From Pomacea canaliculata (taxonomy: Eukaryota > Mollusca > Gastropoda > Architaenioglossa > Ampullariidae): a stretch of 64,000 nt of DNA. How positions within the stretch are numbered: position 1 is the stretch's first letter; every line of letters starts with the position of its first letter. Positions 7,518 through 41,265 of the stretch are shown piece by piece. The translations under genes and the position numbers were made by a program. Location: assembly GCF_003073045.1 (NCBI RefSeq), contig NC_037591.1, positions 20,369,319 through 20,433,318 on the forward strand, written 5' to 3'. Below the pieces are notes generated by a model that worked only from the letters and a program-made list of their open reading frames with translations, had not been told where the DNA came from and did not search any database.

Positions 7518-9113
7518 ATGAAACCAACGCTGAAGAAGCTTGCTGCAGTCGTTGTGATCTCCACCACAATGACCTTTGTCCTTCATTTTTACCTCGTCAG
7601 CGTTCCCGGCAATGGCAAGTCTGTGGTCACCCCAGTGTCCGAGCTTCCAAATGGGAAAGTAAAGCAAAGAGCCGGCAGACGACCAGAGCGAGCAGCTGCT
7701 GACACAGTTGTAGAGGACAGGCGAGGTAGAGAGACCAGGAGGAGGCCAGGTGAGAACTCACACGTGCTGGACAATGTAGTAGACCACGTGGTGGAGAAAG
7801 GTACTGCCCAGCTCCGGCCTCGAGGTGAGCCCAAGATCAACGACACTGACAAGACGTTTGATCACAAAGTGCGCAGCGGGAGGGAGGTGGTGAAGAGATT
7901 GAAGGAGGCGAACCAAGGAAATTCTGTGACTAACCGACCAGCAGTCAGAAGATTCAGAGATTCCGAATCAACAGCTGTTAACAAATCGTCTGGCTTAACA
8001 CAGCGGCCCGTAATTGCTAGAGGAACACGCATGACTGCAACAAGAAATAAGCAACAAGACAAGGTGGCCATCGAAACCCGACCTTCAGCGGGTAAACATT
8101 TAAGAAATGCAACAAATTTGAAACAAAATATTTCTTCTGTAAGAGGTTTACCCCAGCAAAGTGTTGGTAAAAGAAACAACACTAGAGCGGGAAGCAAGTA
8201 TCTTATTTACCTCTGCGACTCAAGAAAGCCGTGTGGAGGCTGGGGCGATCGCCAGCGCGGGATAGTCAACACGTATCTACTGGCCAACGTGACGTCACGA
8301 CGCTTCGGCATCAACATGACGTTCCCTTGTGACGTGCGACAGTTCTTCCAGCCCAAAGACGTCAACTGGACCATCAGCGAAGCCGAGGTTGCCGGGAAGT
8401 CTGTCCGTGTCATAGATGCCGTGGACAGCGGGACGTTCCAGCACGTGCTTCTGACCATCGACTTCAACGAGGTGTACCCCGAGGACGTGGTGTTTCTGAG
8501 AACCAACGTGGAGCACTACTGGCCCATTCGGTCAAATGTCTTCTACAAGAAGCTGCTTCCTCCGTGGGCCCAGCATGGCCGCCCGGAAATGTTCCGCAGA
8601 GGATGGAGCATTTTGATGAACCCAACCAAACACATGCAGGATCACGTTCACTACGTCCTCCAGGAGTGCTCCTTCTTCAATAAAACCTCGCCTTTCGTGT
8701 GTGCGCATGTCAGAATAGGAATCAGCAAGTCCAACCCACGAGATTCAGAGAAAAGAAATGACATCATGTCTTTAGGTGCATTGTGGGAGTTTGTGGGCAA
8801 ATACATCAAAAATGGCAGCCACTTCTTTCTGGCGACAGACTCCTCGGACGTTCGAGAACATTCCAGAAAGATGTTTCATGCTGCGCATCACGACACAGGG
8901 GGCAGGATTCTGCACGTTGACAAGCAAGGGTTGAATAAAGATGCGTGCTTAGGGTTTGAGTCTGCCTTGCTTGACCAGCTAGTGCTGCTGCACTGTGACA
9001 TCCTGGTGACCACCAACAGCATGTTCAGCTACAGGGCCGCCCTCATCCGGGGCACCAACAACGGCCTGTACCACTTCGACAAGGGCAAGTTGCAGCCTCG
9101 GGTGTTGCACTGA
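7518..9113 (+). CDS. Fucosyltransferase-like type II membrane protein, copy A
   Basis: 531 residues in one uninterrupted frame. A short cytoplasmic head is followed by one hydrophobic signal anchor (about residues 8-27), a long basic, Thr/Arg/Asn-rich stem (30-225) and a conserved C-terminal domain (about 226-531). That domain holds CGGWGDRQRG (about 237-247), HVRIG after a Cys (about 396), FFLATDSSDV and TTNSMFSYRAAL. This order recalls the GDP-fucose-binding motifs of fucosyltransferases (GxGDRxRG, HxRxxD, ATD, SxSxFS), but the HxRRxD motif is only partly kept. Inference: a Golgi luminal glycosyltransferase, possibly of the GT11/GT37-type fold; donor and acceptor are unknown. The ATG directly follows a splice acceptor (TTCCTTGCCAG), so an untranslated upstream exon is likely. 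A paralogue lies tail to tail at 11353-12777. A candidate poly(A) signal AATAAA is at 10049. Confidence 0.68.
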   Translation: MKPTLKKLAAVVVISTTMTFVLHFYLVSVPGNGKSVVTPVSELPNGKVKQRAGRRPERAAADTVVEDRRGRETRRRPGENSHVLDNVVDHVVEKGTAQLRPRGEPKINDTDKTFDHKVRSGREVVKRLKEANQGNSVTNRPAVRRFRDSESTAVNKSSGLTQRPVIARGTRMTATRNKQQDKVAIETRPSAGKHLRNATNLKQNISSVRGLPQQSVGKRNNTRAGSKYLIYLCDSRKPCGGWGDRQRGIVNTYLLANVTSRRFGINMTFPCDVRQFFQPKDVNWTISEAEVAGKSVRVIDAVDSGTFQHVLLTIDFNEVYPEDVVFLRTNVEHYWPIRSNVFYKKLLPPWAQHGRPEMFRRGWSILMNPTKHMQDHVHYVLQECSFFNKTSPFVCAHVRIGISKSNPRDSEKRNDIMSLGALWEFVGKYIKNGSHFFLATDSSDVREHSRKMFHAAHHDTGGRILHVDKQGLNKDACLGFESALLDQLVLLHCDILVTTNSMFSYRAALIRGTNNGLYHFDKGKLQPRVLH

Positions 9114-11352: not shown

Positions 11353-12777
11353 CTAGACAGAGAACTTGTGCAAGCCGTTGTTAGAGAGTCGGTAGAGGTT
11401 GTCGTTGGAGCCGCGCACCACTGCAGCAATGTAGCTGAACATGCTGTTGGAGATGACCAACACGTCACAGTGCATCAGCACCAGCTGCTCCAGCAGCGCC
11501 ACCTCCAGGCCCTCGCAAGAGAAGGGCAGCGCCGCCTGCAGGTCCACGTGCACGATGCGCCCCCCAGTGTCCACCACTCGGTCGCCAAAGCGCTTCCGGG
11601 TCAAGTTTCGCGCCTCCTCGGAGTCGGTGGCAAGAAAGAACCTGCTGCCGTTGTTAACATACGGGTCCACAAACCTCCACAGGTCCAGCACCTCAGTGAG
11701 GTTGTGGCGGAAGGCGTCGTTCTTCATGGTAGAGCTTCGACCCATCCGGAAATGTATGCAGACGAAAGGTTGAGTCCTGTTATAGTAACTGACTTTAGAC
11801 AAGAAGGCGTCTAGATGCTCCTGCAAGTGGTCGCTGGGCTTCATCAAGATCTTCCAGCCATTCCGGAACATGACACTTTGAGAATTAGTCGACCACTTAG
11901 GAAATATCTTGGGATAATACAATTTGTTGTTGCGGAGGTTGTAAAAGTAATCGACGTTTGTGCGAATGTAGATGACCTCCTCAGGGTACTGTTGGTTGAA
12001 GTCGATGGTGTTCAGAAGCCGGTTGTACCCGCCACTACCGTTCATGTCGTCCCAGTAGCGGACGGACTTACCCTGCAGCTCCTCGTCTGGCACGATCCAG
12101 CTGTACTTGTTGGGCACGTACAGCTGCGTCAGGTCGCAGGGCTTGCTCATCTTGATCCCGAACCGTCGTCCCGTCACCTGCGACAGTAGGAAGACCGAGA
12201 GAAGCCCCCGCTGTCTGTCTCCCCATCCCCCGCACGATCTTTTTTTGTCGCAGATGAAGATCAGGTAACGGTGGGACAGAGAGGTGGCGTTGGCGACGTG
12301 CAGCATCTGAGTCCCGTTGGCAAATTGCGGGCGAGTTGTCCCACCTTGTACAGGGGGCGCAACACTCAGCGTGGAGTTGCTGCCCTTCCTCGAATCTGGA
12401 CGTTTGGCACTCGTGGAGGTTTGTCCTCGGTCTGCTGTTTGACCAGCGCTTTCTCCTTTCCCTGGGGTAGGAGGCTTTCCATGGCTGATGCCATGGCGAG
12501 TTGTCCTGTTAGAATGAAACTGCCATTCATCATGCTGATTTTGATGGAAACGGTCTTGGTCTTTACCAAGTTCATGCTCCACGAAAGGACTTTGTCCAGG
12601 TGATGAGGTGTTTAATTTCCCCCAAAGCTGCTTTTTGACCTTTGGCCCTGAAAAACCTGACCACCATGTTCTCTCGTTTTCTTCTTTTGTGTTAAGGTGA
12701 TGTCTTTGCCAGAAGATGTAAAGCGAAGCAAAGAATAAGATGGTGTACACTCCAGACACGACGAGCAGACATGTCAT
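11353..12777 (-). CDS. Fucosyltransferase-like type II membrane protein, copy B
   Basis: 474 residues from the ATG at 12777. The frame is open slightly further 5-prime, but TTTGCAG just upstream looks like a splice acceptor, so I start at the first ATG inside the exon. A signal anchor spans about residues 2-22 (TCLLVVSGVYTILFFASLY), followed by a Ser/Thr/Gly-rich stem to about 170. The catalytic-like domain carries CGGWGDRQRG, CIHFRMG, FFLATDSEEA and ISNSMFSYIAAV. All of these align with copy A at 7518-9113, including the spacing; by eye roughly two residues in five agree across the domain. The stems do not align. The same inferred role applies: a Golgi type II glycosyltransferase with unknown acceptor. 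The gene is convergent with copy A, about 2.2 kb apart, which fits an inverted duplication. Confidence 0.68.
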   Translation of the reverse strand: MTCLLVVSGVYTILFFASLYIFWQRHHLNTKEENERTWWSGFSGPKVKKQLWGKLNTSSPGQSPFVEHELGKDQDRFHQNQHDEWQFHSNRTTRHGISHGKPPTPGKGESAGQTADRGQTSTSAKRPDSRKGSNSTLSVAPPVQGGTTRPQFANGTQMLHVANATSLSHRYLIFICDKKRSCGGWGDRQRGLLSVFLLSQVTGRRFGIKMSKPCDLTQLYVPNKYSWIVPDEELQGKSVRYWDDMNGSGGYNRLLNTIDFNQQYPEEVIYIRTNVDYFYNLRNNKLYYPKIFPKWSTNSQSVMFRNGWKILMKPSDHLQEHLDAFLSKVSYYNRTQPFVCIHFRMGRSSTMKNDAFRHNLTEVLDLWRFVDPYVNNGSRFFLATDSEEARNLTRKRFGDRVVDTGGRIVHVDLQAALPFSCEGLEVALLEQLVLMHCDVLVISNSMFSYIAAVVRGSNDNLYRLSNNGLHKFSV

Positions 12778-15700
12778 CAGCTTATTCTGCAAATGAGTTA
12801 TATCTAGATATATGACCAGAATGTCCAGAGTGTAAAAACTAAAGTGGAATTATTTCATTTTAAATTAAAATATTAGCATACGAAATGTATTAATTATTAC
12901 ATAACTACATATAAGTAATTTATGTACAGTAATGATCATTCAGGTCTCTCAAGTATTAATCTACAAGTTTTCGCTGACTTCCTTCTTTTCTCCATTTAGA
13001 CAAAGATTGCTGATCATCCTTACCTTACTAGAACATTACTATTGAGTGTCGATCACACTAACGTTTTTCAAACAAATATTTCGTATAGTTATAATGAAAC
13101 AGGTTTTATTAAATATCTTCAATTTTTATGAATAAGTATTACCGAGTCCCCTACATTGTAAAACACATCAAAGAATTTAGCACTTTCTTGTATCTTTTCT
13201 GGGTATCTCGAACCTTCGGGGCTCTTGTGTCACCAGGAAGTCAGACGAAACTTTAACCTTGTTTAGTCAGTTGCAAAGTAATAGACGGGGTGCACACGAA
13301 ATTTGTATTATAGGTTAGAGTTTGAATTAACGAACAACATTCTTTGAAAAATAGTAATACAGAAGCAAGAGGTTAACACATACCGTGACCTCTACTACAT
13401 CATTCACACCACACACTACACACCTGCATGCACACACCTAGACATGATTTTGTTTATCCTTTTTATGTTTTCTGTCTTGCTCAGCCGGTAGGTAGTCAAC
13501 CATGTCACCTCCTTATGTCCCTAGTTAGAAGAAGAAGTACTGGCAACAACATGTACAAGAGGTAAGACGAGAGGGTCGATCCTGTGTAGCTTCCACTTAC
13601 CGCCATACGGGTGTGTCCACGGCCCGCCTCACCTGATGAGTGTGAGTGTCGGGTGGAGGGGGAGGCAGTGCTCCACTGGTAGACGAGTCACACACAAACA
13701 CACCGCGTCACCTAGTGAGTCGGGGGACCAACCACAAACCCTCCCTGACCCTCCACACACACCTTGCTGTTTCCTCCACCTATCGTCGTGCCACGGACCA
13801 ACGACTGCGGGGTGGTGGTGTGTCGTCTGCCAGCTGAGACTGTGAGCCAACATTTGTACAAAGTGTACACACTCCCCCACTGCCGCCCTGTCTTCAGGTG
13901 GCAGTCACCAACTGCCTGTTGCTGGCTGGAGACACCTTTCCCTGAAGTCGCACTCGCTATAAAATGTAATTGAAAGGCCAGGTCTGAATAAAGGGAATGT
14001 AAATATATGCAAGCTCTCCCTTACATCGTTCTGACAGGTACACGAATACGAGAATCTGTTAGCTTCTCTCTTTAGAAGCAAATAAGAAAAACAAACAAAC
14101 AAACTCGGAGAGCAGAAAAGAAATAAAAGAAAACAAAAATGTAAGAGTTAGGAAATTCTAAATAAATAAATAATCTACTTTTCTCTTTTTAATTTGCTTT
14201 ATCTATTCTATTTGTACGACACCAGAGACACCCTCCATAATTTTGTTTTCTTTAACAATAGCATATTGCATCAAAAGAACCATATACTTCATACTGCGTC
14301 TGATCAACAAAATCAAACATTGATTATTGTATTGATTCCAAAACTCAAACTGTATTCAGCTTTAGATTATCTAAATCATTCCAGAGTATACAATATTTGT
14401 TTTTAAATATTGTCTTTATATACAATTTCTATGTTGGACCATGTCTTAATTCTCTCTTGTATGTGTGTGGGAGAGACTTCAGTATCATGTGTGTGTGTCA
14501 CTGTGTCCTGTTTGTAACCATCCCATCTCTACTATCATGTTCACCGAGGTTTTATTTTCTCGTCCACGCGTTCTTGGCTCGGTTTCACCAGAAACTTTTA
14601 TAGTTTATACGTAACCACGAGGGAGGGGCCTGGACATCCCACATACGTTGAAAGAGTGTCATTGTCTCCGATCTTATTTTTAAAGTTCAAAGCACTCACA
14701 GTCTTGTATCACTCACAAACGAAAGAAATGAGAGTGTGACCCCCATATGATACATGTCCTGTCTGTCCTGTGTACAGAACTACACCTAGCAACGCCTGTG
14801 TGTCTTCACTCTCATCGTGAAGCTCTCGGACATTCTTGGTAACCAGGCAACACCTAGTGTCAGGCCTCGTGTTAATGACACTAAATAGCTCCACGTCCAT
14901 GGTCCTCACTCCCAGCTGTCCAAACTGAGGTTCATGAACTACACAGGCACTGCTGTCGGTCGTTCTGTACAAATGTGAACAGATATGATGTGGTGGCTAA
15001 ACTGTCATATTTCCTTTGCAAGTGATAAAAATTTTGAAAGTATTCAACCTGAAAGCTTTATCGAGACAAAGATACACAAGTGTACGGCAGACCTGCTTTG
15101 CTTTGTGAAAACGGTTTCAGTTTCAAATGACGAAATGCCAGTACATGTAAGTTCAGTGAACCACCTCGACAAGTGGTAAAGTTCAGATAATGTTTCAACA
15201 ATTTAGTAAATGCATGCTATGCCGGTGTCACATTATGTGTGTCCGCCTTTGTCAACATCTATAAACATGTGATGGTAGCTTGCAGACAGTAAACAGCAAA
15301 TATAAATGTCGTGATTGTCAAGCTTCATGTTTCTTTTTGAGAACTACTTTCAGAAACATTTATTTCATCATTGTGAATAGACCGTCATAGTAAAGTGCAA
15401 AGTTCAAACATTTTTAACACCATGAGTTATTTGTATTGCGCAGAAGTGCCACCACACACAAGCCAAATAATCCCTGGGGTTAGGATAAATTATTCAAGTC
15501 CGGGACAGAATCTAGGCTCTACATGTTAAAAGTGCACGAAGAAAATGAAAATAACCTTGACATCAATGAGTAACCATTCACACTGTCAAAAACATTTATA
15601 TGAGCTAATTATTACAAAAAAGGGAAAAGGTCCATTGACATGTGGTTACCCGTTACAAAAGCTGTCACACAAACATAATTTATCTTCTATCTTCAAAGCC

Positions 15701-20553: not shown

Positions 20554-21053
20554 TTTCTTTCTTTCTTTCTTTTTTTCTTTCTTTCTTGATTTCCGCATAT
20601 TAATAGTATAAAGTTTAAAAGGTTTAGAGGTAAGACTCATTCAGTCCTCTTGTACTACAAGACTGCCTACCTGACTAGGATTTTCTTCTTTGTCTTTTTT
20701 CTGACTTCAATGGACTCTAATTTATCTGCTACTTCTATTTTAGAAGTATCTCTCGGTTGCCAAAAGAGAAGGATGCTGAGACCGCGTTAACACAAACAAA
20801 CAAGTTAACGATCAGGTGATAAACACAGTGTCAACCGACCAAGACTTCTAAATTGTTACTTTCCTCCATCTTATACCGTTATGCCGCATGTTAATACACA
20901 TCAAACACTGTATCTCCAATGGTGTGCATCATGTACAGGTCTGTACACCGTGACTAACCCTGACCATTGAGATATAAACTGTGGACTGGTCTCGTTCTAA
21001 AGACAATATACAGCGAGGAGAATGTATAGCAATAAGTCACCTACATACGTGTA
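12778..21053. other. Long region without a supported gene
   Basis: Only short, mostly overlapping frames are present and none shows a recognisable domain. Two weak exon candidates are discussed in the findings: a cysteine-containing plus-strand frame ending at 17609, and a minus-strand frame at 18379-18597. A T-run lies near 17080 and a TTTC microsatellite at 20493-20586. Confidence 0.45.
20493..20586. repeat. (TTTC)n microsatellite
   Basis: About 22 nearly perfect TTTC units with two small interruptions. It explains a lysine/glutamate-rich minus-strand frame that is not a gene. Confidence 0.95.
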
Positions 21054-22300
21054 TGTCATGAACCAACCTGGTTCAAGGCCACAACAACAGTCGAAGCGGG
21101 TATACATAATTACAGGGGGGCCGCGGTCCATGAAAGCGGACAGTGGAGGGAAGCCTCTCTGTTCGTTTTCATTGATGTGACAGGTCACCTCGATTGATGG
21201 AGGTGATATAGGCCCATGGTAAGGGGGTGTAAGGTGTAGTAGTAGAGAATAGCGCGGTGGTCAGTAGTGGCCTTAGTACTAGAGAGATAGCGTTAGGACC
21301 GGGGACGAGGGGTGGCGAGTAGCCACGTGGCCTGGTAGTATATAGTTAGGGTTAGAGGGTTAGTCGGGGCTTTTTCCCTCGTGTTCCAGCAGAGACATAG
21401 TCTCTGAGTGATTGTCAGTCGCAGGCAGCAGGTCTGAAATAGGGAAGCCCGTTCAGTCAGAACGTATCACTACCTGCTGGCACTTGTGATCTGGTGGAGT
21501 AGAGAGGAAGGTGTGCGCTGTAACCAAGGGTTAATTCTCCATCGACAAGTGAGGGAGTTTACTGTGTCCTGCAGCAAGACGTGCGAGGCAGCGGTTGGCA
21601 GACCCCACCGTGCCACCGGTCCAGTATGGTCATCTACAGAACAGCCTACAGTCATCTCTACTACGAATATCGTCGCTGCATCCATTGCCTGGGGCAACTG
21701 TGATGGGACAGTGACAAGGAATCGTCTAGGAGACCCGGTGTATGCAGGCAGCTGCACCCGTCTTCGGGAAATAACGACTTCCAGTTCAGGAGTCAGCGCT
21801 ACTACGAGTATCGTCGCTGCATCCGTTGCCTGGGGCAACCGTGGTGGGGACAGTGACAAGGAATCGCCGAGAAGCCCAGGTGTACGCAGTCAGCTACACC
21901 CATCTTCAGGGAGCAACGGGCGAAGCAGTCGAGTGGGACTATCAGTGCGATATTATTCCAAGACTGTGAATTGTGTGTCAGGGACGGACCGCGTGTCCGG
22001 ACTTATGTGCAGATACGTGCGGATACGTAAGATCATATTATTTTCTCAATTCATTGTTTAATTGTCTTCATGTCAACCTAATGTGCTTTTGTTTTAATTA
22101 TAATCTTTTACATGTACACTGTCGTGTCAGTTGAGTGTTGCGCACGCGGGTGTGACTGTTAGTCAGGACGCGTGCGGACGTGTGAACGGGCGGTTGAGAG
22201 GTGAGGGTGAAAGCGGGCGGAGCGAGCCAGCCAGAGTGACCCCTTTCCCCTAAGGGCGAGTGAGGCCCATCCCTCTACAGCCACGCACCGTTTCATCACA
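21054..22300 (+). repeat. 5-prime LTR
   Basis: 1,247 bp, starting TG and ending CA. It contains two tandem copies of a roughly 141-bp unit (about 21660-21941) and a TATATAG motif near 21347 that could serve as a TATA box. It lacks one of two related roughly 120-bp units present near the start of the 3-prime LTR. The open frames inside it overlap repeats and are not credible genes. Confidence 0.9.
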
Positions 22301-22302
22301 AA

Positions 22303-22320
22303 TGGGGGCTCGTCCGGGAT
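22303..22320 (+). other. Primer binding site, tRNA-Pro type
   Basis: TGGGGGCTCGTCCGGGAT begins two bases after the LTR. It is complementary over 18 nt to the 3-prime end of tRNA-Pro (including CCA), the same primer sequence well known from murine leukaemia virus. This marks the start of minus-strand DNA synthesis. Confidence 0.88.
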
Positions 22321-22585
22321 CTGAATGTTTAGGTTGACCATTTGTTTTCAGGTCCAAAGAAGAGGTCGAAAGTGCGAGTGTTGTCCTTCGTCCTATGTCG
22401 TATCACTCTTTATACATGACATGTTGTTGAACCTAGGATTCTGTGTGTATTGATGTATTTTACTATGCTAGCTAACTTGTGTGACTATCAGAATTGCTTA
22501 ATTAATTGCTGATTTGACATCAATGCGCATCGATTGTAAACAGGTTGCAAGTGGCCAGCAAGTAGCTGAAGCAGAATAAGTGATC

Positions 22586-25500
22586 ATGGTAGCTGTAGGG
22601 TCTCTAGAGTTAGTTACAATGGATAAGAAATTTTGTCTAACACGCAGGGAAAAGGGAAAGGAGTTGAAAGAAGCCGGAGTAGAGCGTGGGCTAGTAGGAA
22701 ACGATTTATGGCAGTATATAGACAGAGAGTTGGACAAATGGTGGGAAGAAAAAAAAGAGGAGAAAGATCGAGTCGAGCGCGAGCGAGAAAGAGAGTACGC
22801 TGAACGCGAGAGAGAGTACGTTGAACGCGAGAAAGAACGCGAGAAAGAACGCGAGAGGAGGAGAGCTGAGCGCGAGAGACAGCTAGTAGAACGCGAGAAA
22901 GAGCTAGTAATGCGCGAGTTTATAGAGATATTAGAAGAAATCTGCGAAGAGAAAGGTAAAACTGAGGAAGAGTCACGACAGTTTATAGAGTACAATTTAA
23001 AGGGCTGTCGCTGGGGAACGATAGCCGAAGAGAGAGAGGAAAAGGCTAGAGTAGAGGAGGAAGATAGAGTTGCACGCGAACGCGCGCTCGAACGGGTCAA
23101 AAGCCAGAAGGCTGAAAAGGAAAAGAAAGAGCGAACCAAGCGCGAGAAAGAGCGAGAATTTCTGCGAGAGGTGTGCCGGCTAGGCGGAGTCAGCTTAGAT
23201 GATAGTGATCCGGCCGAGGCAGGTACTTACAGGTCAGAGCGCGGGGTGGCGCCCGCTGTTAGCTGTTCTAGGTGTGGGGGTGCAGGGCATGACCCGAGGT
23301 CTTGTCCCCAACAGTCCGACAGGCTGAGGAGATCTGTAGGTGTGAAGTGTTACGACTGCAGGGTGGTAGGGCACTATGCGCGCAGTTGTCCCCGTGGTTA
23401 CGAGTTGCGTGAGGCTGTAACCACGAGGGGGGAGAAGCTAGCTAGCGAGGTAGATGCTAGCGACGCATACGCTAGTGACAGGAGTGCTACCGATGTACAG
23501 GTTAGCGACGTAGGGCCTGGCGATGCGGTGACCAGCGGCGCGTATACTAGTGGTAGAAATGCTGCTGATGTTAAGGTTAACGAAGTGAATCCTAGCAAGG
23601 AAGAAGCTAGAGGAGTAGAAACTGGCGAGCAGGCCAGCGGGAAGGAGGGGGTTTTCCCAGGAGGGGGGACTACCCGTGAGAGAGGAGGGTTAGGAGGTGT
23701 AGAGTTTCCTAATCTCCTCGTGAGCGAAGCCGGGCACAGTCACGCTGTTAGGCAACTGCAGGTACAGGACCAGGGTCTTAGGAAGGCGCGAGAGCTGGTT
23801 AGCGGTACTAGGGCATTGCAGGCAGCAGGAAGTGGCGATCGCGAGAGGCGAGTGCCGGTTGGTAGTGCGGATCTGCTGCAGGCGGGCGACAGCGGCCATC
23901 GTGAGATGCGAGCGCCGACTGTCGTTAGAGAACCGCTGCAGACAGGTGACAGTGGCAGTCTTGGAGACCAAGTGCCAACTGTCGTTAGAGGGCCGCTGCA
24001 GGCGGTTGACAACGGCCATCGTGAGATGCGGGCGCCGATTGTCGTCAGAGAACCGCTGCAGGCGGATGACACTGGCAAACTTGAGGAACAAGTGCCAGCT
24101 GTCAGTGAAGCGCAGTTGCAGGCAAGAGACAGTGACAGCCCGGAGGGGCGAGTGTCAGCTGTCAGGGAAGTGCCGTTACAGGCAAGGGACAGTGGCAGTC
24201 CGGAGGGACCAATGCCAGCTGTCAGGAGCGTGCTGTTGCGGGCCAAAGACAACGGTGATCCTGGAGGGTGGGAGCCGACGGTCTTTGAGGTGCCGTTGCA
24301 GACGGGAGACACTGGCAATCTTGAGGAACAAGTGCTAGCTGTCAAGGAAGTACTGTTGCAGCCTGGTGTCAGTGACAGTCCAGAGAGACTGGTGCCAACT
24401 GTCGAGAGAGGTACAGACTGGCACCGACTGGTACGAACCAAAGACGGCGATGATCCTGGAGGCCAGGATCCAAAGGTCTTTGAGGTGCCAGTGCAGACAG
24501 GAGACACTAGCGATCCCGAGTGGGGGGTGCTAGCTGTCCGTTGCGTCCCAGTGATCGCAGACGGCGAGTCGGGCTTAGGTGTGAGACCGGCAGTATCGCC
24601 AGCGAAGAGGGACGGGGAGGTGTGGGTGACTATACAGACAGTGGTTGTCAAAGTAAGCCCCACACTCACAGAATGTGCGGAAACTTTCAGAAGTGACCGC
24701 ACGGTCGGAGCCGTACAGATGAAGAGGCACGACGAGATGCATCGGGAGGTGCAGCAGCTGGAGGAAGCCATTCGTCGCAGTAATACAACATATGAAGCGG
24801 CGAAGAGACTGGAGCAAGCAAAGCAGGAAGAGTTGCAAGATTTGCTTCGAGCGATTGCAGACAGAGAGCGGGAACATAAAGACGCCCGAAAGGCTCTGAA
24901 TCGTGTGCGGAAGAAAATTAGAAAAGAGGAGAACAAACTCAACAAGTTAGTGTCTAAAACAAACGCCAACCTGGGTCGGATTCGGCCAGATCCGGACAGG
25001 AAGCAAGAGCTGGATAGAACAAGTCAGTCACGTCTACAGCGCAGAAAGGAGGCCAGCAATATGTATGCAAATGAGGAGAAGTTTGGTGACATGCAAAACC
25101 CTATTCATAGACTAGAGAAGAAGATGGGGGAACGCAACAAGAAGAAGAATGAAATGGCCAAGGCTGCATCAGCGTTATTAGAGGGAGCACAGAGGCTCCA
25201 CACAGAATCAGTTGAGGGTCAGGAACTCTTAAAGGAAGAGCAAGCCTGGTACGAAAACACGCTGACTGACATTCAGCAACTGATGGGGCCGAGAAAACAG
25301 CTGCTACAAGAAAATCAAGAGAAGCGGCAGTTGAAGCTCACCTATGCGATGCAGAAGCTGGAGCAGAGTGAGCTGGAGAGCTTACAGACACAACTTGCAG
25401 AGGAAACGAGTGACTCTGAGAGAGTCCGAGTAGGTGTGAAAATGCACTACCAGTTGGAGGCAAGGGTAAAATCGCCACAGAATGCATCAGACTGGCGGCT

Positions 25501-26557
25501 TGCGCAGAGACCTACAGCCAGGTCAGCAAGCCAGCGAACCCAGCGGGGTAAGAGGTCAAGAAGGCGTGACCGGCGAAGGCACGCGTCCTCACGGCTGGGG
25601 TCGGATAGGACATCACGTGATGTCAGCAAGAAAGGTTTGGTTACATCGGAAGGGATAGGTAAAGCGCTTTTCACCTCAGGTAGCCATCGCGAAAGGGTGC
25701 AGCGTGCCCGGAAGGGGGTGGGCGGCGCCTTGATGAGGACACCGCGAGTAGGTCCGGTGTGGGAACGTCAACGCGTTGCTCATGGCAACGCACAGGTAGT
25801 AAGTAGCCTGCGTTATCAGAAGTCGTTGCACCGCCAGAAAGAAGTAAACTGGCTAGGTAGGGATTTAGCAGCAGAAGTCGGTAGATCTCAAGTAACCTGG
25901 AGGTTGACAAAGGCAGAACTGCACAATAATAACCGACTGGTGATGGGGTCGCTGCTCATCCAGAAGTACGACGCCCACTTTACACACAGTCCGGGCGAAG
26001 TTCGAGGTGTAGGAACAAATAGCGTAGGAAGAGAATCGAGTTTGGCAATAGCGGAAATTGCAGGAGAGGGTGCGACAGGGGACACGGACGGGGAAGCCGA
26101 CCGTATGTCGCATGTAGATAGAAATCAGCCGATTGCGGTGTCGGCGAGGAACAGTAAGACGCGCGGTAACCAAAACAAAGCGGTCCGCGGTCAGGGTACG
26201 GTTGGTTGGCTATCAACGAACAGCGTCGGTAGGGTAATTAACCCAGGGGGAAGAGCGGTACGCGCTGCCTGTCAACCTGATCCGATCATCGATGGTTCAG
26301 TAAAGAAACTGTTCAGTGAGCAAGATGACGTAGGCCTTACACAGGGTAGGGTCAAGTTTAGTGATGTCAGGTCAAGTATAGTGCCGGACATACACGGGCC
26401 GAAGGGCGGCGTTAGTCATGTCACATGTGCGGGGTTAGCATACGGCTTGACAGCATTGGATAGTGTGCAAAGATTCATTCCGTACTGGGCCGAATGGGAT
26501 CTTTGGAAGCGAAACGACCGCAAGATAGAACTAGGCGAGTCGCGTGTGCGTGGGTAA
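22586..26557 (+). CDS. Gag-like polyprotein of the LTR element
   Basis: 1,323 codons from the first ATG (22586); a second in-frame ATG near 22619 is also possible. The N-terminal part is strongly charged, with Arg-Glu-rich helices (about residues 50-110 and 150-200) that should form coiled coils. Two CCHC zinc knuckles of the form C-x2-C-x4-H-x4-C follow at about 227-240 and 255-268, the hallmark of a nucleocapsid that binds RNA. Residues about 412-655 are a tandem array of a 20-residue unit. A second long charged coiled-coil stretch spans about 710-950, followed by a basic, glycine-rich tail. No capsid fold can be recognised by eye and no protease or polymerase motif is present. Inference: it makes a particle-forming or RNA-packaging protein supplied in trans with enzymes. 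Such a length is far above a typical Ty3/Gypsy Gag. Confidence 0.8.
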   Translation: MVAVGSLELVTMDKKFCLTRREKGKELKEAGVERGLVGNDLWQYIDRELDKWWEEKKEEKDRVEREREREYAEREREYVEREKEREKERERRRAERERQLVEREKELVMREFIEILEEICEEKGKTEEESRQFIEYNLKGCRWGTIAEEREEKARVEEEDRVARERALERVKSQKAEKEKKERTKREKEREFLREVCRLGGVSLDDSDPAEAGTYRSERGVAPAVSCSRCGGAGHDPRSCPQQSDRLRRSVGVKCYDCRVVGHYARSCPRGYELREAVTTRGEKLASEVDASDAYASDRSATDVQVSDVGPGDAVTSGAYTSGRNAADVKVNEVNPSKEEARGVETGEQASGKEGVFPGGGTTRERGGLGGVEFPNLLVSEAGHSHAVRQLQVQDQGLRKARELVSGTRALQAAGSGDRERRVPVGSADLLQAGDSGHREMRAPTVVREPLQTGDSGSLGDQVPTVVRGPLQAVDNGHREMRAPIVVREPLQADDTGKLEEQVPAVSEAQLQARDSDSPEGRVSAVREVPLQARDSGSPEGPMPAVRSVLLRAKDNGDPGGWEPTVFEVPLQTGDTGNLEEQVLAVKEVLLQPGVSDSPERLVPTVERGTDWHRLVRTKDGDDPGGQDPKVFEVPVQTGDTSDPEWGVLAVRCVPVIADGESGLGVRPAVSPAKRDGEVWVTIQTVVVKVSPTLTECAETFRSDRTVGAVQMKRHDEMHREVQQLEEAIRRSNTTYEAAKRLEQAKQEELQDLLRAIADREREHKDARKALNRVRKKIRKEENKLNKLVSKTNANLGRIRPDPDRKQELDRTSQSRLQRRKEASNMYANEEKFGDMQNPIHRLEKKMGERNKKKNEMAKAASALLEGAQRLHTESVEGQELLKEEQAWYENTLTDIQQLMGPRKQLLQENQEKRQLKLTYAMQKLEQSELESLQTQLAEETSDSERVRVGVKMHYQLEARVKSPQNASDWRLAQRPTARSASQRTQRGKRSRRRDRRRHASSRLGSDRTSRDVSKKGLVTSEGIGKALFTSGSHRERVQRARKGVGGALMRTPRVGPVWERQRVAHGNAQVVSSLRYQKSLHRQKEVNWLGRDLAAEVGRSQVTWRLTKAELHNNNRLVMGSLLIQKYDAHFTHSPGEVRGVGTNSVGRESSLAIAEIAGEGATGDTDGEADRMSHVDRNQPIAVSARNSKTRGNQNKAVRGQGTVGWLSTNSVGRVINPGGRAVRAACQPDPIIDGSVKKLFSEQDDVGLTQGRVKFSDVRSSIVPDIHGPKGGVSHVTCAGLAYGLTALDSVQRFIPYWAEWDLWKRNDRKIELGESRVRG
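23821..24550 (+). repeat. 60-bp tandem array inside the Gag-like frame
   Basis: About 10 to 12 imperfect copies of a 60-bp unit in perfect reading register, each encoding a variant of LQAxDSGxxExxxPxVxExP. Copies differ by many substitutions but almost never in length, so the frame has been kept open. One irregular unit occurs near 24410-24440. Confidence 0.9.
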
Positions 26558-26794
26558 GCACACCTCTAGGCTCTGTAGGTCGTGTAAATATTTATTCATG
26601 TATACGATTTTGAAGATTTGCGTTTGGGGTATCTCTCTACAGTAGGTAGAGTACCCAGTAGTTGGTTGTTTCATGAAAGCGGCAAGAACGTGTTACTGGA
26701 AGCGTGTCGCTCAGAATGTATGGAAGTTTTGATAATAGTTTTAGGCTTCACTGTTGTTTTGGCCTGATTTTTAAGCAAAACCCCAGGTTTTACT

Positions 26795-26808
26795 CTTGAG
26801 TAGGGGGG
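26795..26808 (+). other. Polypurine tract of the LTR element
   Basis: A purine-rich run (GAGTAGGGGGG) lies directly against the start of the 3-prime LTR, the expected place for the plus-strand primer. Confidence 0.75.
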
Positions 26809-28176
26809 TGTCATGAACCAACCTGGTTCAAGGCCACAACAACAGTCGAAGCGGGTATACATAATTACAGGGGGGCCGTGGTCAATGGAAGCGGACAGCG
26901 AGAGGAAGCCTTTCTGTCCGTTTCTACTTGAAAGATCGCCGTGGTTGATAGAGGCGATCGAGGCCCAGGGTAAGCGGTTAGATAATTACAGGTGGGCCGC
27001 GGTCCATGAAAGCGGACAGTGGAGGGAAGCCTCTCTGTTCGTTTTCATTGATGTGACAGGTCACCTCGATTGATGGAGGTGATATAGGCCCATGGTAAGG
27101 GGGTGTAAGGTGTAGTAGTAGAGAATAGCGCGGTGGTCAGTAGTGGCCTTAGTACTAGAGAGATAGCGTTAGGACCGGGGACGAGGGGTGGCGAGTAGCC
27201 ACGTGGCCTGGTAGTATATAGTTAGGGTTAGAGGGTTAGTCGGGGCTTTTTCCCTCGTGTTCCAGCAGAGACATAGTCTCTGAGTGATTGTCAGTCGCAG
27301 GCAGCAGGTCTGAAATAGGGAAGCCCGTTCAGTCAGAACGTATCACTACCTGCTGGCACTTGTGATCTGGTGGAGTAGAGAGGAAGGTGTGCGCTGTAAC
27401 CAAGGGTTAATTCTCCCATCGACAAGTGAGGGAGTTTACTGTGTCCTGCAGCAAGACGTGCGAGGCAGCGGTTGGCAGACCCCACCGTGCCACCGGTCCA
27501 GTATGGTCATCTACAGAACAGCCTACAGTCATCTCTACTACGAATATCGTCGCTGCATCCATTGCCTGGGGCAACTGTGATGGGACAGTGACAAGGAATC
27601 GTCTAGGAGACCCGGTGTATGCAGGCAGCTGCACCCGTCTTCGGGAAATAACGACTTCCAGTTCAGGAGTCAGCGCTACTACGAGTATCGTCGCTGCATC
27701 CGTTGCCTGGGGCAACCGTGGTGGGACAGTGACAAGGAATCGCCGAGAAGCCCAGGTGTACGCAGTCAGCTACACCCATCTTCAGGGAGCAACGGGCGAA
27801 GCAGTCGAGTGGGACTATCAGTGCGATATTATTCCAAGACTGTGAATTGTGTGTCAGGGACGGACCGCGTGTCCGGACTTATGTGCAGATACGTGCGGAT
27901 ACGTAAGATCATATTATTTTCTCAATTCATTGTTTAATTGTCTTCATGTCAACCTAATGTGCTTTTGTTTTAATTATAATCTTTTACATGTACACTGTCG
28001 TGTCAGTTGAGTGTTGCGCACGCGGGTGTGACTGTTAGTCAGGACGCGTGCGGACGTGTGAACGGGCGGTTGAGAGGTGAGGGTGAAAGCGGGCGGAGCG
28101 AGCCAGCCAGAGTGACCCCTTTCCCCTAAGGGCGAGTGAGGCCCATCCCTCTACAGCCACGCACCGTTTCATCACA
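26809..28176 (+). repeat. 3-prime LTR
   Basis: 1,368 bp. It matches the 5-prime LTR almost base for base except that it carries about 121 bp more near its start. There two diverged units of about 120 bp, each beginning ATAATTACAGG, stand in tandem (about 26858-27110). The 5-prime LTR has one unit that starts like the first and continues like the second, as expected from recombination between them. The rest, including the 141-bp duplication and the TG...CA ends, is shared. Confidence 0.9.
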
Positions 28177-28237
28177 GTGTAACTGTGGAGTAACAACTGA
28201 TCTCTTTATACTTTCACCTTTGTTGCCTCGCTGGTTG

Positions 28238-28432
28238 TACGTTCATATCTATCGTCTTGCTTACTGTCATTTAACATCTGTTGTATGCTAATTGTAATTC
28301 ACAGTACTTTCATATCTATCGTCTTACTGTCATTTAACATCTGTTGTATGCTAATTGTAATTCACAGTACTTTCATATCTCTCGTCTTGCTGACTGTAAC
28401 TTGACATCTGTTGTATGCTGATTGTCATTCCC
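28238..28432. repeat. Tandem repeat, three copies of a 62-66-bp unit
   Basis: Three adjacent copies contain TTCATATCT...CGTCTT and ACATCTGTTGTATGCT. The first two are very similar; the third has diverged. The array starts about 60 bp beyond the LTR element and is not part of it. Confidence 0.85.
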
Positions 28433-29585
28433 ACCATAACCGGAATGATTGTCATCTCGGCCACAAGTCCTACAATTCAACTTCACAACTGTGAGCAAAC
28501 AGTCCGCTCGCTCGTATTTCAACTAACAGTTCAGCCATCCGACTATCGATACCCAGTCAACCTCACAACAATGAGGTGTTATATATACATATAGCGATGA
28601 TCAATATGAGAGATTGTTAGATGTTAATGCTTGTTAACGGCAAATCCCCCGAGAGACAGTTTACTGTCGGTTGTTGACAGAACCTTAGACAGACCTTCGT
28701 CACTTGTTTGCTCTTTGTTCTGGTCAAACTGATTTTCGATTTTGTCGTGCAAACAAGCCATCCACAATAGCACAGACCTACATTTCCCCACCTCAAGCAA
28801 ATCCCAATACAGATATTTTCGAATCACCTTTTGATTCCCAGTCACGCATGACTAGAGCTGGACATGACTACAAGAGAAAAACACGAAAGCAGTGTAAACT
28901 CTACCAGAAAAAATGATTTAGAAAAATTAGGTACCTAAGATGTAAGGACCCAGAGTTTTATTCTGAACAATCTTAACAAGATTAATAGTCATAAAAGAAA
29001 GTAGACAGGTCCCTTCAGGACCAGTATATCCAGAACTGGATAGGAGAACTCGAATATAAACAAATTTATCCAAATTATAGAATGTTTAAAAGTACTTTTG
29101 TACTAGAACCTTACTTAAATAAACATGTACTGATATATTTTTAATATCTCAATACCATAGAGAAGGTGGTAGAATAGAGAATCTTGAATCTTGCTATGTG
29201 CGGGTTCATGACCTCGTTAGACTGGATGACAGCTGGAAAGTCGTCTAACGTGAAGCAGCCAACCACTGCTGACAGTTCAGCCACTGTCTAGTCAATCTAG
29301 TCAATCTAGTGTCTACAGCCGCCATCAGATTAATCACGTGACGTGCGACTTATCAGTTGTGACTCTCGCCTCTCAAGATCCGCTTTGCATTATGACATAA
29401 CGACATAACGACATAATGCTGCTGTAGACCTGCTGTACTTACAGTCATCTGCACTTTACAGTCATCTGCACTTTACAGCCATCGGCACCAGTCTTGAACA
29501 GAAGAGGCCTGCATGTCCTCCTAGTCACGACAGTAAGGAGGGAGAGACATCACTGACAATAAGTAAACATTTGTTTTATTTCTAG
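28433..29585. other. Region upstream of the calexcitin-like gene
   Basis: No gene is supported. Short direct repeats occur at about 29288-29310 (CAATCTAGT) and 29449-29490 (ACAGTCATCTGCACTTT). The promoter and first untranslated exon of the gene at 29609 probably lie here, since its first coding exon opens behind a splice acceptor at 29584-29585. Confidence 0.4.
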
Positions 29586-35969: not shown

Positions 35970-37310
35970 TTACAGATGTGCTATGTGTGTTCGCATATGC
36001 TTCTTCAAAAAATAATATGTAGTGAATGCTTCAGTGCATTCCAAACACTTGTATGGTTTTTCATTAGTATGCATCACAAAATGTCTTTTCAAATAGTAGT
36101 TAGTTGAGAAGGCATAATGACAGGTGGGACATTTGTATGGCCGCTCACCTGTATGAGTTCTCTGATGCTTTTTCAAGTCTGATGACTCTGGAAATGCAGC
36201 ATTGCACTCAGAACATTTAAATGGTTTTTCACCTGTGTGACCCCTCATGTGTATTTTCAATCTTGTCTTTGTGGTAAAGCCACTGCCACATTCTGTACAC
36301 ACAAATGGTTTAACTCCAGTATGGGTCATTATGTGCACAGACAAGTGGTTCTTGGTTATAAATGCAGCAGAGCAATGGGGGCACTTAAATGGCTTTTCCC
36401 CTGTGTGCATCCTGTTATGAACCTTTAAATTAAATTTAGTTGAATAACTTGCATTGCACTCCTTACATGGGTATGGTTTTTCTCCAGTGTGAACTCTCAT
36501 GTGTGTCTTAAGATTGTGCTTTGTGACAAACAAGGAGTCACACTCCTCACATCTGTACCGTTTTTTAGGGTTCTCTAATTTCTGTTGAGTACTTTTAGAT
36601 ACAGCTGCTGTATGTTCTTCTTTCAGAAATGATTCCAAACTAGCACTTCCTATTATATCATCTTTGTCTAGCTCATCACCATCATAAAAAGAGCATGGTG
36701 ATGACAGACCTGTTTCCCTCTTCTGCTGGCTTGACTTTAAGTTCTGTCTGGTCTGCTGAATGTCGTCCATGCTGTCCCCACATGTGAAAGAAGAAGAAAA
36801 TGAATGTGCAGACCCCTCGGCATCTCCAGAAGAAACCTTATCTGATGTGGTATCTTGGCTGTATTCTGTGATAAATGACTCCTCATCACATAACAGGTCT
36901 GTATCCAAAACACAATCATAGTCAGCGCTAACAGGAACACTTCTCCTTATTGGTTTTAAGCCAGCTTTCCTTGACTTACTGCATTTTCCTGACAACTGAT
37001 TGATCTCTGAACAATCAGGTTCACGACTTTTACAAATGATTTTTATGCTTCGCAGTTTTTCACTATCTGAACTTGAAATTTCACATGCTTTCTTACAGTC
37101 TATTCCTGACAGGGAATCATCTGGAGGCAGCAAAATTTCCTCATTTATGGATACACATAATGCATCTTGTCTTTGCACATTCTTATAACTTGCATAATTG
37201 GTTGGAAGTCGAACCTCAGCAGGTTGTCGACGAAGTGGTACATGTTTACATGGGCGCAAAGTTTTCACCAAAGGTTTAATCTCAATAGAAAGGTTTTCCA
37301 CCTCCTCCAT
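35970..37310 (-). CDS. C2H2 zinc-finger protein with seven fingers
   Basis: 446 residues from ATG 37310. Residues 1-250 are acidic and Ser-rich with no recognisable BTB, KRAB, SCAN or ZAD domain. About 251-446 hold seven canonical C2H2 fingers (C-x2-C-x12-H-x3-H) joined mostly by TGEKP linkers, ending THIAHL. Such arrays bind DNA in the nucleus, so a transcription regulator is inferred; the target is unknown. The coding part is one exon. It probably begins at 37391, behind a strong acceptor (TTCACTTTTGCAG). That leader contains a short upstream frame (six codons) and an in-frame stop before ATG 37310, which supports this start. The upstream promoter is probably near 38.3-38.7 kb. A second zinc-finger gene lies 2.3 kb upstream on the same strand; the two finger sets are not close copies of each other. 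Confidence 0.88.
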   Translation of the reverse strand: MEEVENLSIEIKPLVKTLRPCKHVPLRRQPAEVRLPTNYASYKNVQRQDALCVSINEEILLPPDDSLSGIDCKKACEISSSDSEKLRSIKIICKSREPDCSEINQLSGKCSKSRKAGLKPIRRSVPVSADYDCVLDTDLLCDEESFITEYSQDTTSDKVSSGDAEGSAHSFSSSFTCGDSMDDIQQTRQNLKSSQQKRETGLSSPCSFYDGDELDKDDIIGSASLESFLKEEHTAAVSKSTQQKLENPKKRYRCEECDSLFVTKHNLKTHMRVHTGEKPYPCKECNASYSTKFNLKVHNRMHTGEKPFKCPHCSAAFITKNHLSVHIMTHTGVKPFVCTECGSGFTTKTRLKIHMRGHTGEKPFKCSECNAAFPESSDLKKHQRTHTGERPYKCPTCHYAFSTNYYLKRHFVMHTNEKPYKCLECTEAFTTYYFLKKHMRTHIAHL

Positions 37311-38329
37311 CAGAACTTGTTTAATGCGCTTATGGTTTCCCTTGTTCTGTGGTTACAACCCTCAGTCCTTAAGATGTTACAGGAACCATTCCTGCAAAAG
37401 TGAATAGCTTTTCAATTCCTTAATAAGCAATCTTATGTAACTTATAGTGTAAGAAAAATATGTGGTAAGTAAAAGAAATAACAGAAATTCTTCAAACATT
37501 TTGTGCAAATAAAACATAAAATTCTATTAAAGAGGCTTATTGTTTTTGTGTTTTTTTTTGGTTGCTTTTTTTTGTTTTTTTGTTTTTTTTCAAAGTCTAA
37601 CTTTACCCAAGTTGTCATTGGAGATATTTATTAGGCAGTGCAGAGCAGTAGAAACTATGCATTTCACTTACTTTGTGAAAATCTGAATAAGTGGAAACAA
37701 TTGTTGTTTGTATAATCGTCCCATAGGCAGTAAATGTATTCCTTGTAATAAAGTTCATACACAATTCGTTGTGTGATATGGTTAGTATCTACTTTTACTG
37801 ATATATCATAAAACATTAAATATCTAGAGGTCATTACATACAAAGATCTAACTAGTAATAAAAGTTGTGATTTTTTTATTAAACAGAAGAAATGACAACT
37901 TAAATACTTGGAGACATTCAAATGTAGTCTGCTCTGCTCGTGTACTTTGTAGTTGTTATGACACCTAGCAGCTGTAAATAATCCTAAATTCACGAAGAAA
38001 CGGCAGGCAACTAAAATCTGTCGCTTTCTTACCACTTTCACATAGACGAGTATAATGGTACAAATCAACCACGCGAAACGATGACAATTGCACAAGCAAG
38101 CTTTAATTGAATGATACCTCTGATCAAATTAATTTATGACGCCATGAACATGAAGACAGCAACAGCTAAGCTATTAGTTTCATACTCCCTGAAACAATCA
38201 AGTTCAAAGGAGATTTACGGTACAACGCACTACTAATATTTGAAACTTTATCTGGGCTAATTTACATTTGTAGTTCGAGCTCAATTATGTTCGAAAATAA
38301 ATATTATCAATCTCTTTGAATGATGCGTT

Positions 38330-39648: not shown

Positions 39649-41265
39649 TTACAGTTTTTCGCCTGTATGTTTGCGTTTATGCACCTTCAAATAAGAACCC
39701 CTTGCATAAGATGCACCACATTCCTCACAAACATATGGACGTACACCTGTGTGCTTTGTCATATGTGTTTTGAGATAAGATGTTCTCGCAAATGCTGCTC
39801 CACACTCTTTACAAACAAATTTTTTAACTCCTGTGTGTTTCCACATATGATTTTTTAAGTAACTGAGACGTGCATAGGTGGCACCACATTCCTTGCAAGA
39901 AAAGCATTTTACCCCTGTGTGCTTCCACATGTGGACTTTAAGATAAGAAGGTCGATGAAAGGCCTTTCCACAGTCTTTGCAGACAAATGGTCGTTCACCA
40001 GTGTGTTTATACATGTGAATCTTCAGGAAACTTTCTCGTGAAAATGTTGAAGGGCAGACGGTGCAGAAATATGGTTTCTCCTTGACATGAGCTTGCATAT
40101 GTTGAAGAAAAGCTTTGACATTTGTAAGGCCAAATTCTTTCTGGCAAATACCACAGGCAAATGGTTTAGGCAGAGTTAAGGTCTGGGAACTGCTGGTGCC
40201 AATTTCTTCAGATGTATTAAGAACAGATGAACTTGATATCAAGTGCTGCAGAGCAAACAAAATGCACTGTTTCAAATCTACTATCAAATGAAATGTATTT
40301 CTCACAACAAAAGTACAAAGTACAGTGAAATTGTCATTTTACGCTGAGCCAACAACTAAGGCTATATTACGGCAAGGCAGCCATCGCTGTAAACAGATGC
40401 CACATGCAGTGTGCCCAAGATCAGAGCTGAACCCTGGACAGCCAACCTTCACTGTATTGGTGACAGGTGCTAAAAGTTGCATCAACCAAAGGTAAAAGAA
40501 ATGCCAAGCTTAATGTATCACTTGATTTTAAAATATTTTTAAAAATCCATGTCTCAGGAAAGTTATTTCATGCTAATCGATTAATCTACCAATAGACTCA
40601 ATGACTACTAGACGTGCAGTCTAAATGTTTTTAGGTCATAAAGGTTACAACAGAGGTTTCAATTTTCTAGCTCAGAGATTTAATGATACTAAACTTAATA
40701 ATTATAAATAATGACCCACTAGTTTATATTACTTTTGCACCATAAAGTTAATGAGTAAATGCCTAAATTGCATACATTCTGGGTGGGACAGGCTCTCTAA
40801 GGTTAAGTTTAAAAAATGCAGTGGATGCACCAGATCAAACTGTGTAAGTTATCAACCTTTCATTATTTTTAATGTTAATTCACACATGCTTTATTAGGCC
40901 AAAAATAAAAATATATGCACAAATAATAAAATCAGAGCTATATTCACCAAACTTCATGAGCATATCAAGATGTAGATCCACTCAAAACCCGTCTACTTAG
41001 CTAACAGGCATTAGTAAATTTAATGGGCAGATTATAAGTTGCTATATATCACCATGCATGAAAAGTTTTTAACAAATTATATCTTTTTGTTTCAGATATA
41101 ATGAAAATCCCAATCAAATAACTTGCTGATAATAAATTGTTACTTTCTTACTTCATCTAAGAATCCTGGATTCTGCCACTTTCCATCATGCTGAGAATTA
41201 GGACTAATGGTTTGCAGTTTATTTTCACCTTTGCATTTTTTATTACCGTAATCTTCGCCTTCCAT
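39649..41265 (-). CDS. C2H2 zinc-finger protein with six fingers
   Basis: Two coding exons, 41265-41152 and 40245-39649, joined in phase 0 by a GT-AG intron, give 236 residues. The first exon starts MEGEDYGNKKCKGENKLQ behind an acceptor (CTGCACAG), so an untranslated exon lies further upstream. The second exon holds six C2H2 fingers. Fingers three to six are very alike (YLKxHMxKHTGV), and the protein stops right after the last one. Finger one has 14 rather than 12 residues between the second Cys and first His, so it may not fold normally. A nuclear DNA-binding role is inferred; the target is unknown. The frame continues upstream of 40245 for 20 codons, but that part reads as intron ending in CTCTGCAG. 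Confidence 0.85.

What the first reader, a model, noticed from the sequence alone, without database searches (positions are those of the whole stretch)
21054..28176. A young LTR element that carries only a very long Gag-like frame
Seen directly: matching LTRs, an exact 5-bp target duplication, a primer binding site, a polypurine tract, and one open frame of 1,323 codons with two CCHC knuckles. No polymerase segment is recognisable. Established: gag-only LTR elements (TR-GAG type) are described mainly from plants. A recent one in a mollusc, with such a large Gag, would be notable and implies a partner element that supplies enzymes.
Basis: partly seen in the sequence, partly recalled or inferred. 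Interest (0 to 1): 0.75.

Follow-up and report, generated by a model that had tools for sequence, protein, structure and literature searches.

The report
Capsid-less Gag-derived parasitic LTR retrotransposon
This is a young jumping element that lacks copying enzymes and a recognisable capsid, yet keeps one very long protein under selection; it belongs to a family that appears to depend on a related enzyme-bearing element in the same genome.

Summary
LTRs 21054-22300 and 26809-28176 differ by no substitution in 1,246 columns, flanked by GTGTA, with a tRNA-Pro primer site, polypurine tract and a 1,323-codon frame with two CCHC knuckles. Pfam finds only knuckles.

It is not a lone wreck. I read eight copies in its genome (window, L009, L013, L014, L030, L031, L035, L036), in two subfamilies, all pol-less in the same layout; five have uninterrupted frames of 1,260-1,325 codons. 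dN/dS between subfamilies is 0.53-0.59, intervals below 1.

One close relative (L029) shares primer site, leader, 3' tail and LTR but carries Gag, integrase, RT and RNase H in Gmr1-type order; its frames are broken here. Against it, our ORF is the Gag N-terminus without detectable capsid, then knuckles, 20-aa repeats and a long coiled coil, with a faint RNase H-like trace.

So 'gag-only' is partly right: a non-autonomous, apparently capsid-less Gag derivative, most likely mobilised in trans, its protein an adaptor to the partner's particles (inferred). New variant of a known kind.

The parts
21049..21053 (+). target-site duplication GTGTA (left)
21054..22300 (+). 5' LTR, 1,247 bp, TGTCATGA...TCATCACA; lacks one U3 repeat
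22303..22320 (+). primer binding site, 18/18 to the complement of the tRNA-Pro(TGG) 3' end
22321..22585 (+). leader; with the PBS 96% identical (269 of 279) to that of the pol-bearing relative L029
22586..26557 (+). single ORF, 1,323 aa
   Evidence: dN/dS
22595..22774 (+). aa 4-63: 60% identical to Gag N-terminus of L029 (E 5e-14; profile match aa 4-106, E 3.1e-19)
22625..23182 (+). predicted long charged helices (aa about 14-199); no globular capsid in the single-sequence model
23264..23305 (+). CCHC knuckle 1 (a Cys lost in L009 and L014; pattern also absent from L035)
23348..23389 (+). CCHC knuckle 2; intact in the six copies checked (window, L009, L013, L014, L035, L036); above Pfam cut-off in the 3 relatives scanned
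23846..24385 (+). nine 60-bp (20-aa) repeats; number varies between copies
24662..25405 (+). two predicted helices of about 104 aa (aa 693-796, 837-940), likely coiled coil (model low-confidence overall, higher in these helices)
24692..24808 (+). aa 703-741: faint, not significant match to RNase H start of L029 pol (E 0.034)
25856..26032 (+). aa 1091-1149: match to RNase H end of L029 pol (E 1.3e-4; 0 of 1,000 residue shuffles as high)
   Evidence: weak by hhalign
26558..26797 (+). non-coding 3' tail, 91% identical to L029
26798..26808 (+). polypurine tract GAGTAGGGGGG
26809..28176 (+). 3' LTR, 1,368 bp
28177..28181 (+). target-site duplication GTGTA (right)

Best explanation
A non-autonomous LTR retrotransposon family derived from a Ty3/Gypsy-like element with Gmr1-type gene order. 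Its RNA is primed by tRNA-Pro and is reverse transcribed and integrated by enzymes of a pol-bearing relative (shown: shared PBS type, leader, 3' tail, LTR; inferred: trans-mobilisation). Its one protein keeps the relative's Gag N-terminal coil and RNA-binding-type knuckles but has no detectable capsid domain or enzymes, and has repeats and a long coiled coil in their place. Most likely it binds its own RNA through the knuckles and joins the relative's particles through the shared coil, an adaptor that gets this RNA packaged (inferred).
For: Young complete element; same pol-less layout in eight loci; purifying selection on the ORF, with 0.26-0.50 in the Gag-derived coil; L029 shares the PBS of 5 pol-less copies, leader 96% with the window, tail 91-96%, LTR 93.8% with L014 and carries integrase, RT and RNase H; Gag N-terminal homology E 3.1e-19; no capsid by Pfam or in the fold model while Pfam detects SCAN in an intact relative.
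Against: L029, the only close pol relative found, is frame-broken in this assembly, and the next pol scored is 64% (partial) or 53% identical (69 of 655 candidates scored), so a working supplier was not shown. Pfam also missed the capsid in L029's own diverged Gag, so absence by Pfam alone is not decisive. The knuckle segment shows no selection signal (ratio above 1 with small dS in 3 of 5 window-versus-copy comparisons) and knuckle 1 is lost in some copies. One out-of-frame control was as low as 0.65. No expression, binding or particle data.
Confidence: 0.55

Rival explanations
1. TR-GAG / RLG_Quinta type: the element supplies ordinary structural Gag to a shared pool.
For: Same overall plan; Quinta also carries Gag plus a domain of unknown function (PMC11302176, passages).
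Against: No capsid domain found in the ORF; blastp against L029's Gag finds only the N-terminus, nothing below E 3 in the capsid part.
Confidence: 0.15
2. The protein interferes with or regulates the partner's particles, like a truncated Gag restriction factor (Ty1 p22 type; recalled).
For: Shared Gag N-terminal coil without capsid would suit a dominant-negative product (inference).
Against: A purely inhibitory product would cut its own supply of enzymes (inference); no functional data.
Confidence: 0.13
3. The ORF is a passive remnant of gag-pol and only the RNA matters, as in LARD or ETn elements.
For: RNase H-like trace; repeat array shows no clear coding constraint; variable repeat number.
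Against: dN/dS 0.53-0.66 with intervals below 1 in 4 of 5 window-versus-copy comparisons, the fifth 0.74 (0.58-1.00); frames of 1,260 codons or more in both subfamilies.
Confidence: 0.1
4. The coiled-coil part is a captured host gene carried by an LTR vehicle.
For: Pfam matches nothing between the knuckles and the ORF end; coil predicted.
Against: Genome search of aa 665-1323, 67 of 67 candidates scored, gave family copies and many short or broken matches; no host gene was evident, but the short matches were not examined one by one. An RNase H-like trace lies behind the coil.
Confidence: 0.07

Closest known systems
TR-GAG elements (plants; also single-ORF Copia families in Ectocarpus)
   Same: LTRs and one ORF, no RT or integrase; depend on another element
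   Different: They keep a recognisable GAG domain (PMC6022998 and PMC8704663, passages; PMC12477816, passage). Here no capsid domain is found
RLG_Quinta / RLG_Cereba pair (wheat)
   Same: Shared PBS, LTR ends and LTR parts between pol-less and pol-bearing element; ORF plus a domain of unknown function (PMC11302176, passages)
   Different: Quinta's GAG homology is clear and Cereba encodes all proteins; here the capsid is not found and the close pol copy is broken
Gmr1-clade Gypsy elements
   Same: The relative L029 and an intact cousin L034 have integrase before RT and RNase H
   Different: The window element itself has no pol; no phylogeny was made to place L029 or L034 in the clade
ETn / MusD (mouse)
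   Same: A non-autonomous LTR element using a relative's machinery (PMC6466679, passages)
   Different: ETn has no coding capacity

Membership tests
LTR retrotransposon | paired LTRs, target duplication, PBS, PPT | tested here: met
   also L009, L013, L014
TR-GAG | no RT or integrase domains | tested here: met
   (weak RNase H-like trace)
TR-GAG | recognisable GAG (capsid) domain | tested here: not met
   only zinc knuckles by Pfam; homology only to Gag N-terminus. Pfam sensitivity is limited, see L029
autonomous/non-autonomous pair (criteria in PMC11302176) | same PBS, LTR termini, conserved LTR parts in a pol-bearing family | tested here: met
   L029: PBS identical to 5 pol-less copies (a variant of the window's), LTR ends alike, LTR 93.8% to L014 but 83% to the window, leader 96%
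autonomous/non-autonomous pair | partner encodes working enzymes | tested here: inconclusive
   L029 frames broken in this assembly; cousins with long open frames only 46-53% identical
Gmr1 clade (for the relative, not the window element) | integrase upstream of RT | tested here: met
Gmr1 clade (for the relative) | RT/RNase H phylogeny within clade | not tested
   no reference set at hand
LARD | long element, no coding capacity | tested here: not met
   ORF under purifying selection

The most novel reading that the evidence does not exclude
A satellite retrotransposon whose lineage has discarded the capsid and all enzymes and evolved a capsid-less Gag paralogue (Gag coil, knuckles, repeats, new long coil) as a dedicated device to load its own RNA into another family's particles, successful enough that eight copies were read against one close pol-bearing relative found in the genome held.
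Probability: 0.3. Interest if true: 0.8.

Novelty: new variant of a known kind. Interest (0 to 1): 0.6.

Why it matters
The Gag-bearing non-autonomous LTR elements in the papers seen here keep a recognisable GAG domain, which explains why the ORF is kept: it makes particles. Here the particle-building domain appears absent and the ORF is still under selection in two subfamilies. That makes a question directly testable: what can a retrotransposon protein without capsid or enzymes do for its own RNA? It also gives an example, if the host is an animal as the window's neighbours suggest, of a multi-copy pol-less family beside a rare pol-bearing relative of unusual gene order.

Tried and rejected
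Rejected: C12 LTR pair 12.8 kb apart as an autonomous partner; flanks align at 98.1% over 6.9 kb, so it is a duplicated solo LTR. Repeat array as a selection test: pN/pS 0.73, 71 of 300 column shuffles as low, inconclusive. Retropepsin in the D(S/T)G repeats: no Pfam support and no hydrophobic context. N-terminal internal duplication: E 0.022 in low-complexity coil, not claimed. Fold search of the N-terminal model: best E 2.2, uninformative. Viral and prokaryotic collections gave no confirmed relative; PDB sequence searches gave only weak coil or knuckle matches or nothing. No tRNA gene, and no Rfam family at gathering score, in the window.

Full report
OBSERVATION. The element lies at 21054-28176, with a 5-bp duplication GTGTA on both sides. 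Its LTRs show 0 substitutions in 1,246 aligned columns, two single-base indels and one 121-bp indel. The indel falls between two imperfect U3 repeats (94 of 124 columns identical) that share ATAATTACAGG; the 5' LTR begins like copy 1 and continues like copy 2, so it fits a deletion between repeats, perhaps during reverse transcription (inference). Zero changes puts the 95% upper limit of divergence near 0.24% (Poisson, my arithmetic). The PBS matches tRNA-Pro 18 of 18 (passage in PMC12217144); the MLV PBS-Pro probe in PMC4587795 holds the same 18 letters.

ORF. The 1,323-codon frame is far beyond chance: longest stop-free run 1,325 codons against at most 220 in 500 shuffles. T is lowest at codon position 1 in 8 of 9 segments (in the first segment it is lowest at position 3). 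Pfam gives only zinc knuckles, below cut-off in the window copy and above it in the three relatives scanned. I scanned the main ORF and 23 other-frame pieces of 60 aa or more touching the internal region: no retroelement enzyme, a few unrelated families below cut-off.

FAMILY IN THE GENOME. The genome holding the window (440 Mb, 24 contigs, unnamed) could be searched only now and then; 4 searches were answered. The LTR query gave 51 matches with 40 of 199 candidates scored, so this is a lower bound. I fetched 20 loci: 3 are full pol-less copies, L009, L013 and L014; 17 hold LTR sequence without the internal region by blastn. Of those 17, 14 have a perfect 5-bp duplication around the LTR (ends were chosen among candidates near the blast ends, which favours a match; in L026 the LTR is split by about 4 kb). 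L010, L011 and L012 share the same duplication, and L010 and L011 align at 98.1% over 6.9 kb including flanks, so there are at most 12 independent solo LTRs. L021, L022 and L023 gave none.

The PBS variant found in other copies occurs 7 times in the genome. All 7 were read: 5 pol-less full layouts (L009, L013, L014, L030, L031), 1 truncated (L032), 1 pol-bearing (L029). For L030 and L031 only part of the 5' LTR was fetched. A search with aa 665-1323 scored 67 of 67 candidates and showed a second subfamily at about 71-76% identity. Two of its members, L035 and L036, have frames of 1,275 and 1,262 codons, with PBS, PPT and 3' LTR start seen; their outer LTR ends were not fetched. Eight pol-less copies were thus read. 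Five have uninterrupted frames of 1,260-1,325 codons (window, L013, L014, L035, L036). L009, L030 and L031 are broken by my reading, although one search lists a 1,271-aa frame at L009.

SELECTION. dN/dS of the window ORF (bootstrap 95%): L013 0.63 (0.48-0.87), L014 0.66 (0.50-0.89), L009 0.74 (0.58-1.00); L035 0.59 (0.49-0.73), L036 0.53 (0.44-0.67). Other pairs: L009/L013 0.76, L009/L014 0.87, L013/L014 0.70 (no intervals), L013/L035 0.57, L035/L036 0.60. In the five window comparisons the N-terminal coil has 0.26-0.50. Out-of-frame controls ranged from 0.65 to 1.07, so single comparisons are not strong by themselves; the L035 and L036 results at dS above 0.2 are the best evidence, though no out-of-frame control was run for them. 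The knuckle segment shows ratios above 1 with small dS in 3 of 5 window comparisons (L014, L035, L036). This may reflect mosaicism: from window 22901 to about 24100 identity to L035 and L036 is 84-99%, against 72-92% in most of the rest of the internal region.

RELATIVE WITH ENZYMES. L029 (with L033) has LTRs 1,235 of 1,247 identical with 54 gaps, duplication TCTGC, leader 96% to the window, tail 91% (95-96% to L013 and L014), and LTR 93.8% identical to pol-less copy L014 but 83% to the window. It encodes a Gag N-terminal coil plus capsid-like region, integrase H2C2 and C-terminal domains, then RT and RNase H. Its frames are broken. L009 shows 40 small indels between its own LTRs against 5 substitutions, so assembly errors may contribute in such copies. 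The order integrase before RT is that of the Gmr1 clade (PMC6238403, passages; PMC8220671, passages); Gmr1 is not in the mollusc clade table shown in those passages. In the genome L029's pol piece matches only itself closely; next are 64% (partial, one stop) and 53%, several lying in open frames near 1,500 aa (69 of 655 candidates scored). One of these, L034, has 736-bp LTRs 99.7% identical, a tRNA-Pro-like PBS and SCAN - integrase - RT - RNase H in one 1,505-codon frame; it shares no LTR or leader with our element at blastn level. The capsid part of L029 is inferred from its alignment to L034's Gag (36% over 214 aa, coil included, E 2.5e-27); Pfam and PDB searches do not find it alone.

WHAT THE ORF IS. 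aa 4-63 are 60% identical to L029's Gag start (E 5e-14); a profile match covers aa 4-106 (E 3.1e-19). The match ends before the capsid. A single-sequence fold of aa 13-284 is long helices to about aa 199 with no globule; the knuckle part is below pLDDT 50. Downstream, aa 1091-1149 match L029's RNase H end (E 1.3e-4; 0 of 1,000 residue shuffles as high); five other copies give E 0.001-0.021 there (L013, L030, L031, L035, L036) and L014 none. aa 703-741 match its start at E 0.034 (0.027 in L013, 0.010 in L014, 0.47-0.89 in L030, L031, L035, L036), in collinear order. The same six-frame test gave one antisense match at E 0.008, so values near 0.01 carry no weight, and hhalign scores the end match only E 0.0084, probability 4.8%. 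I take this as a hint that the coiled coil grew inside a decayed RNase H, no more. In my reading of the alignment the catalytic Asp positions (recalled) are not kept.

MECHANISM. Shown: structure, recent copying, shared cis-signals with a pol-bearing relative, selection on the ORF. Inferred: enzymes in trans; coil-to-coil joining with the relative's Gag; knuckles binding the element's RNA. The supplier may be L029-like copies in other individuals or an intact cousin; not settled.

LITERATURE. In searches for TR-GAG, gag-only and non-autonomous LTR elements no title or abstract start listed described an animal gag-only or capsid-less LTR family; several of these lists were capped (for example 20 of 3,067, 20 of 31, 20 of 38, 10 of 283). 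For the papers cited I saw passages or, for PMC6238403, also the abstract. The TR-GAG founding paper is not held. The library lacks most subscription papers, so this is not proof of absence.

Noticed in passing
21106-21140; 26858-27102: 3' LTR has two imperfect 121-bp U3 repeats, 5' LTR only one, although the LTRs are otherwise free of substitutions.
   Followed up: partly
21660-21918: Imperfect tandem duplication (100 of 118 columns identical) inside the LTR; repeat hits of the same kind appear in several other copies.
   Followed up: no
22303-22320; L035; L036: Two PBS forms in one family: TGGGGGCTCGTCCGGGAT (window, L036) and TGGGGGCTCGAGCCGGG (L035 and the 7 places), perhaps two primer tRNAs or a primer-templated change.
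   Followed up: partly
L013, L014, L009, L035, L036: Mosaic identity: internal region about 95% identical while LTRs are 84-85% (L013, L014), and 22901-24100 more alike between subfamilies than most of the rest; points to recombination.
   Followed up: partly
L034, C4:7551800-7560700: Gypsy-like element with one 1,505-codon frame, SCAN capsid and integrase before RT; several related pol frames in this genome.
   Followed up: partly
L010, L011, L012 (C12:31-85 kb): Apparently the same solo LTR in three places of a segmental duplication (98.1% over 6.9 kb for L010/L011; L012 shares the target duplication and following bases).
   Followed up: partly
G000:C6:6820498 (953-aa frame, one TAG): Distant 56% match to the coiled-coil part (69 aa); possible further family.
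   Followed up: no
7476-9113 and 11353-12849: Two long ORFs on opposite strands with an inverted 105-nt match (77%); one weakly matches glycosyltransferase family 11, below cut-off.
   Followed up: no
35970-37352 and 39649-40338 (- strand): C2H2 zinc-finger ORFs.
   Followed up: no
28260-28452: 63-67 bp tandem repeats just beyond the 3' flank.
   Followed up: no
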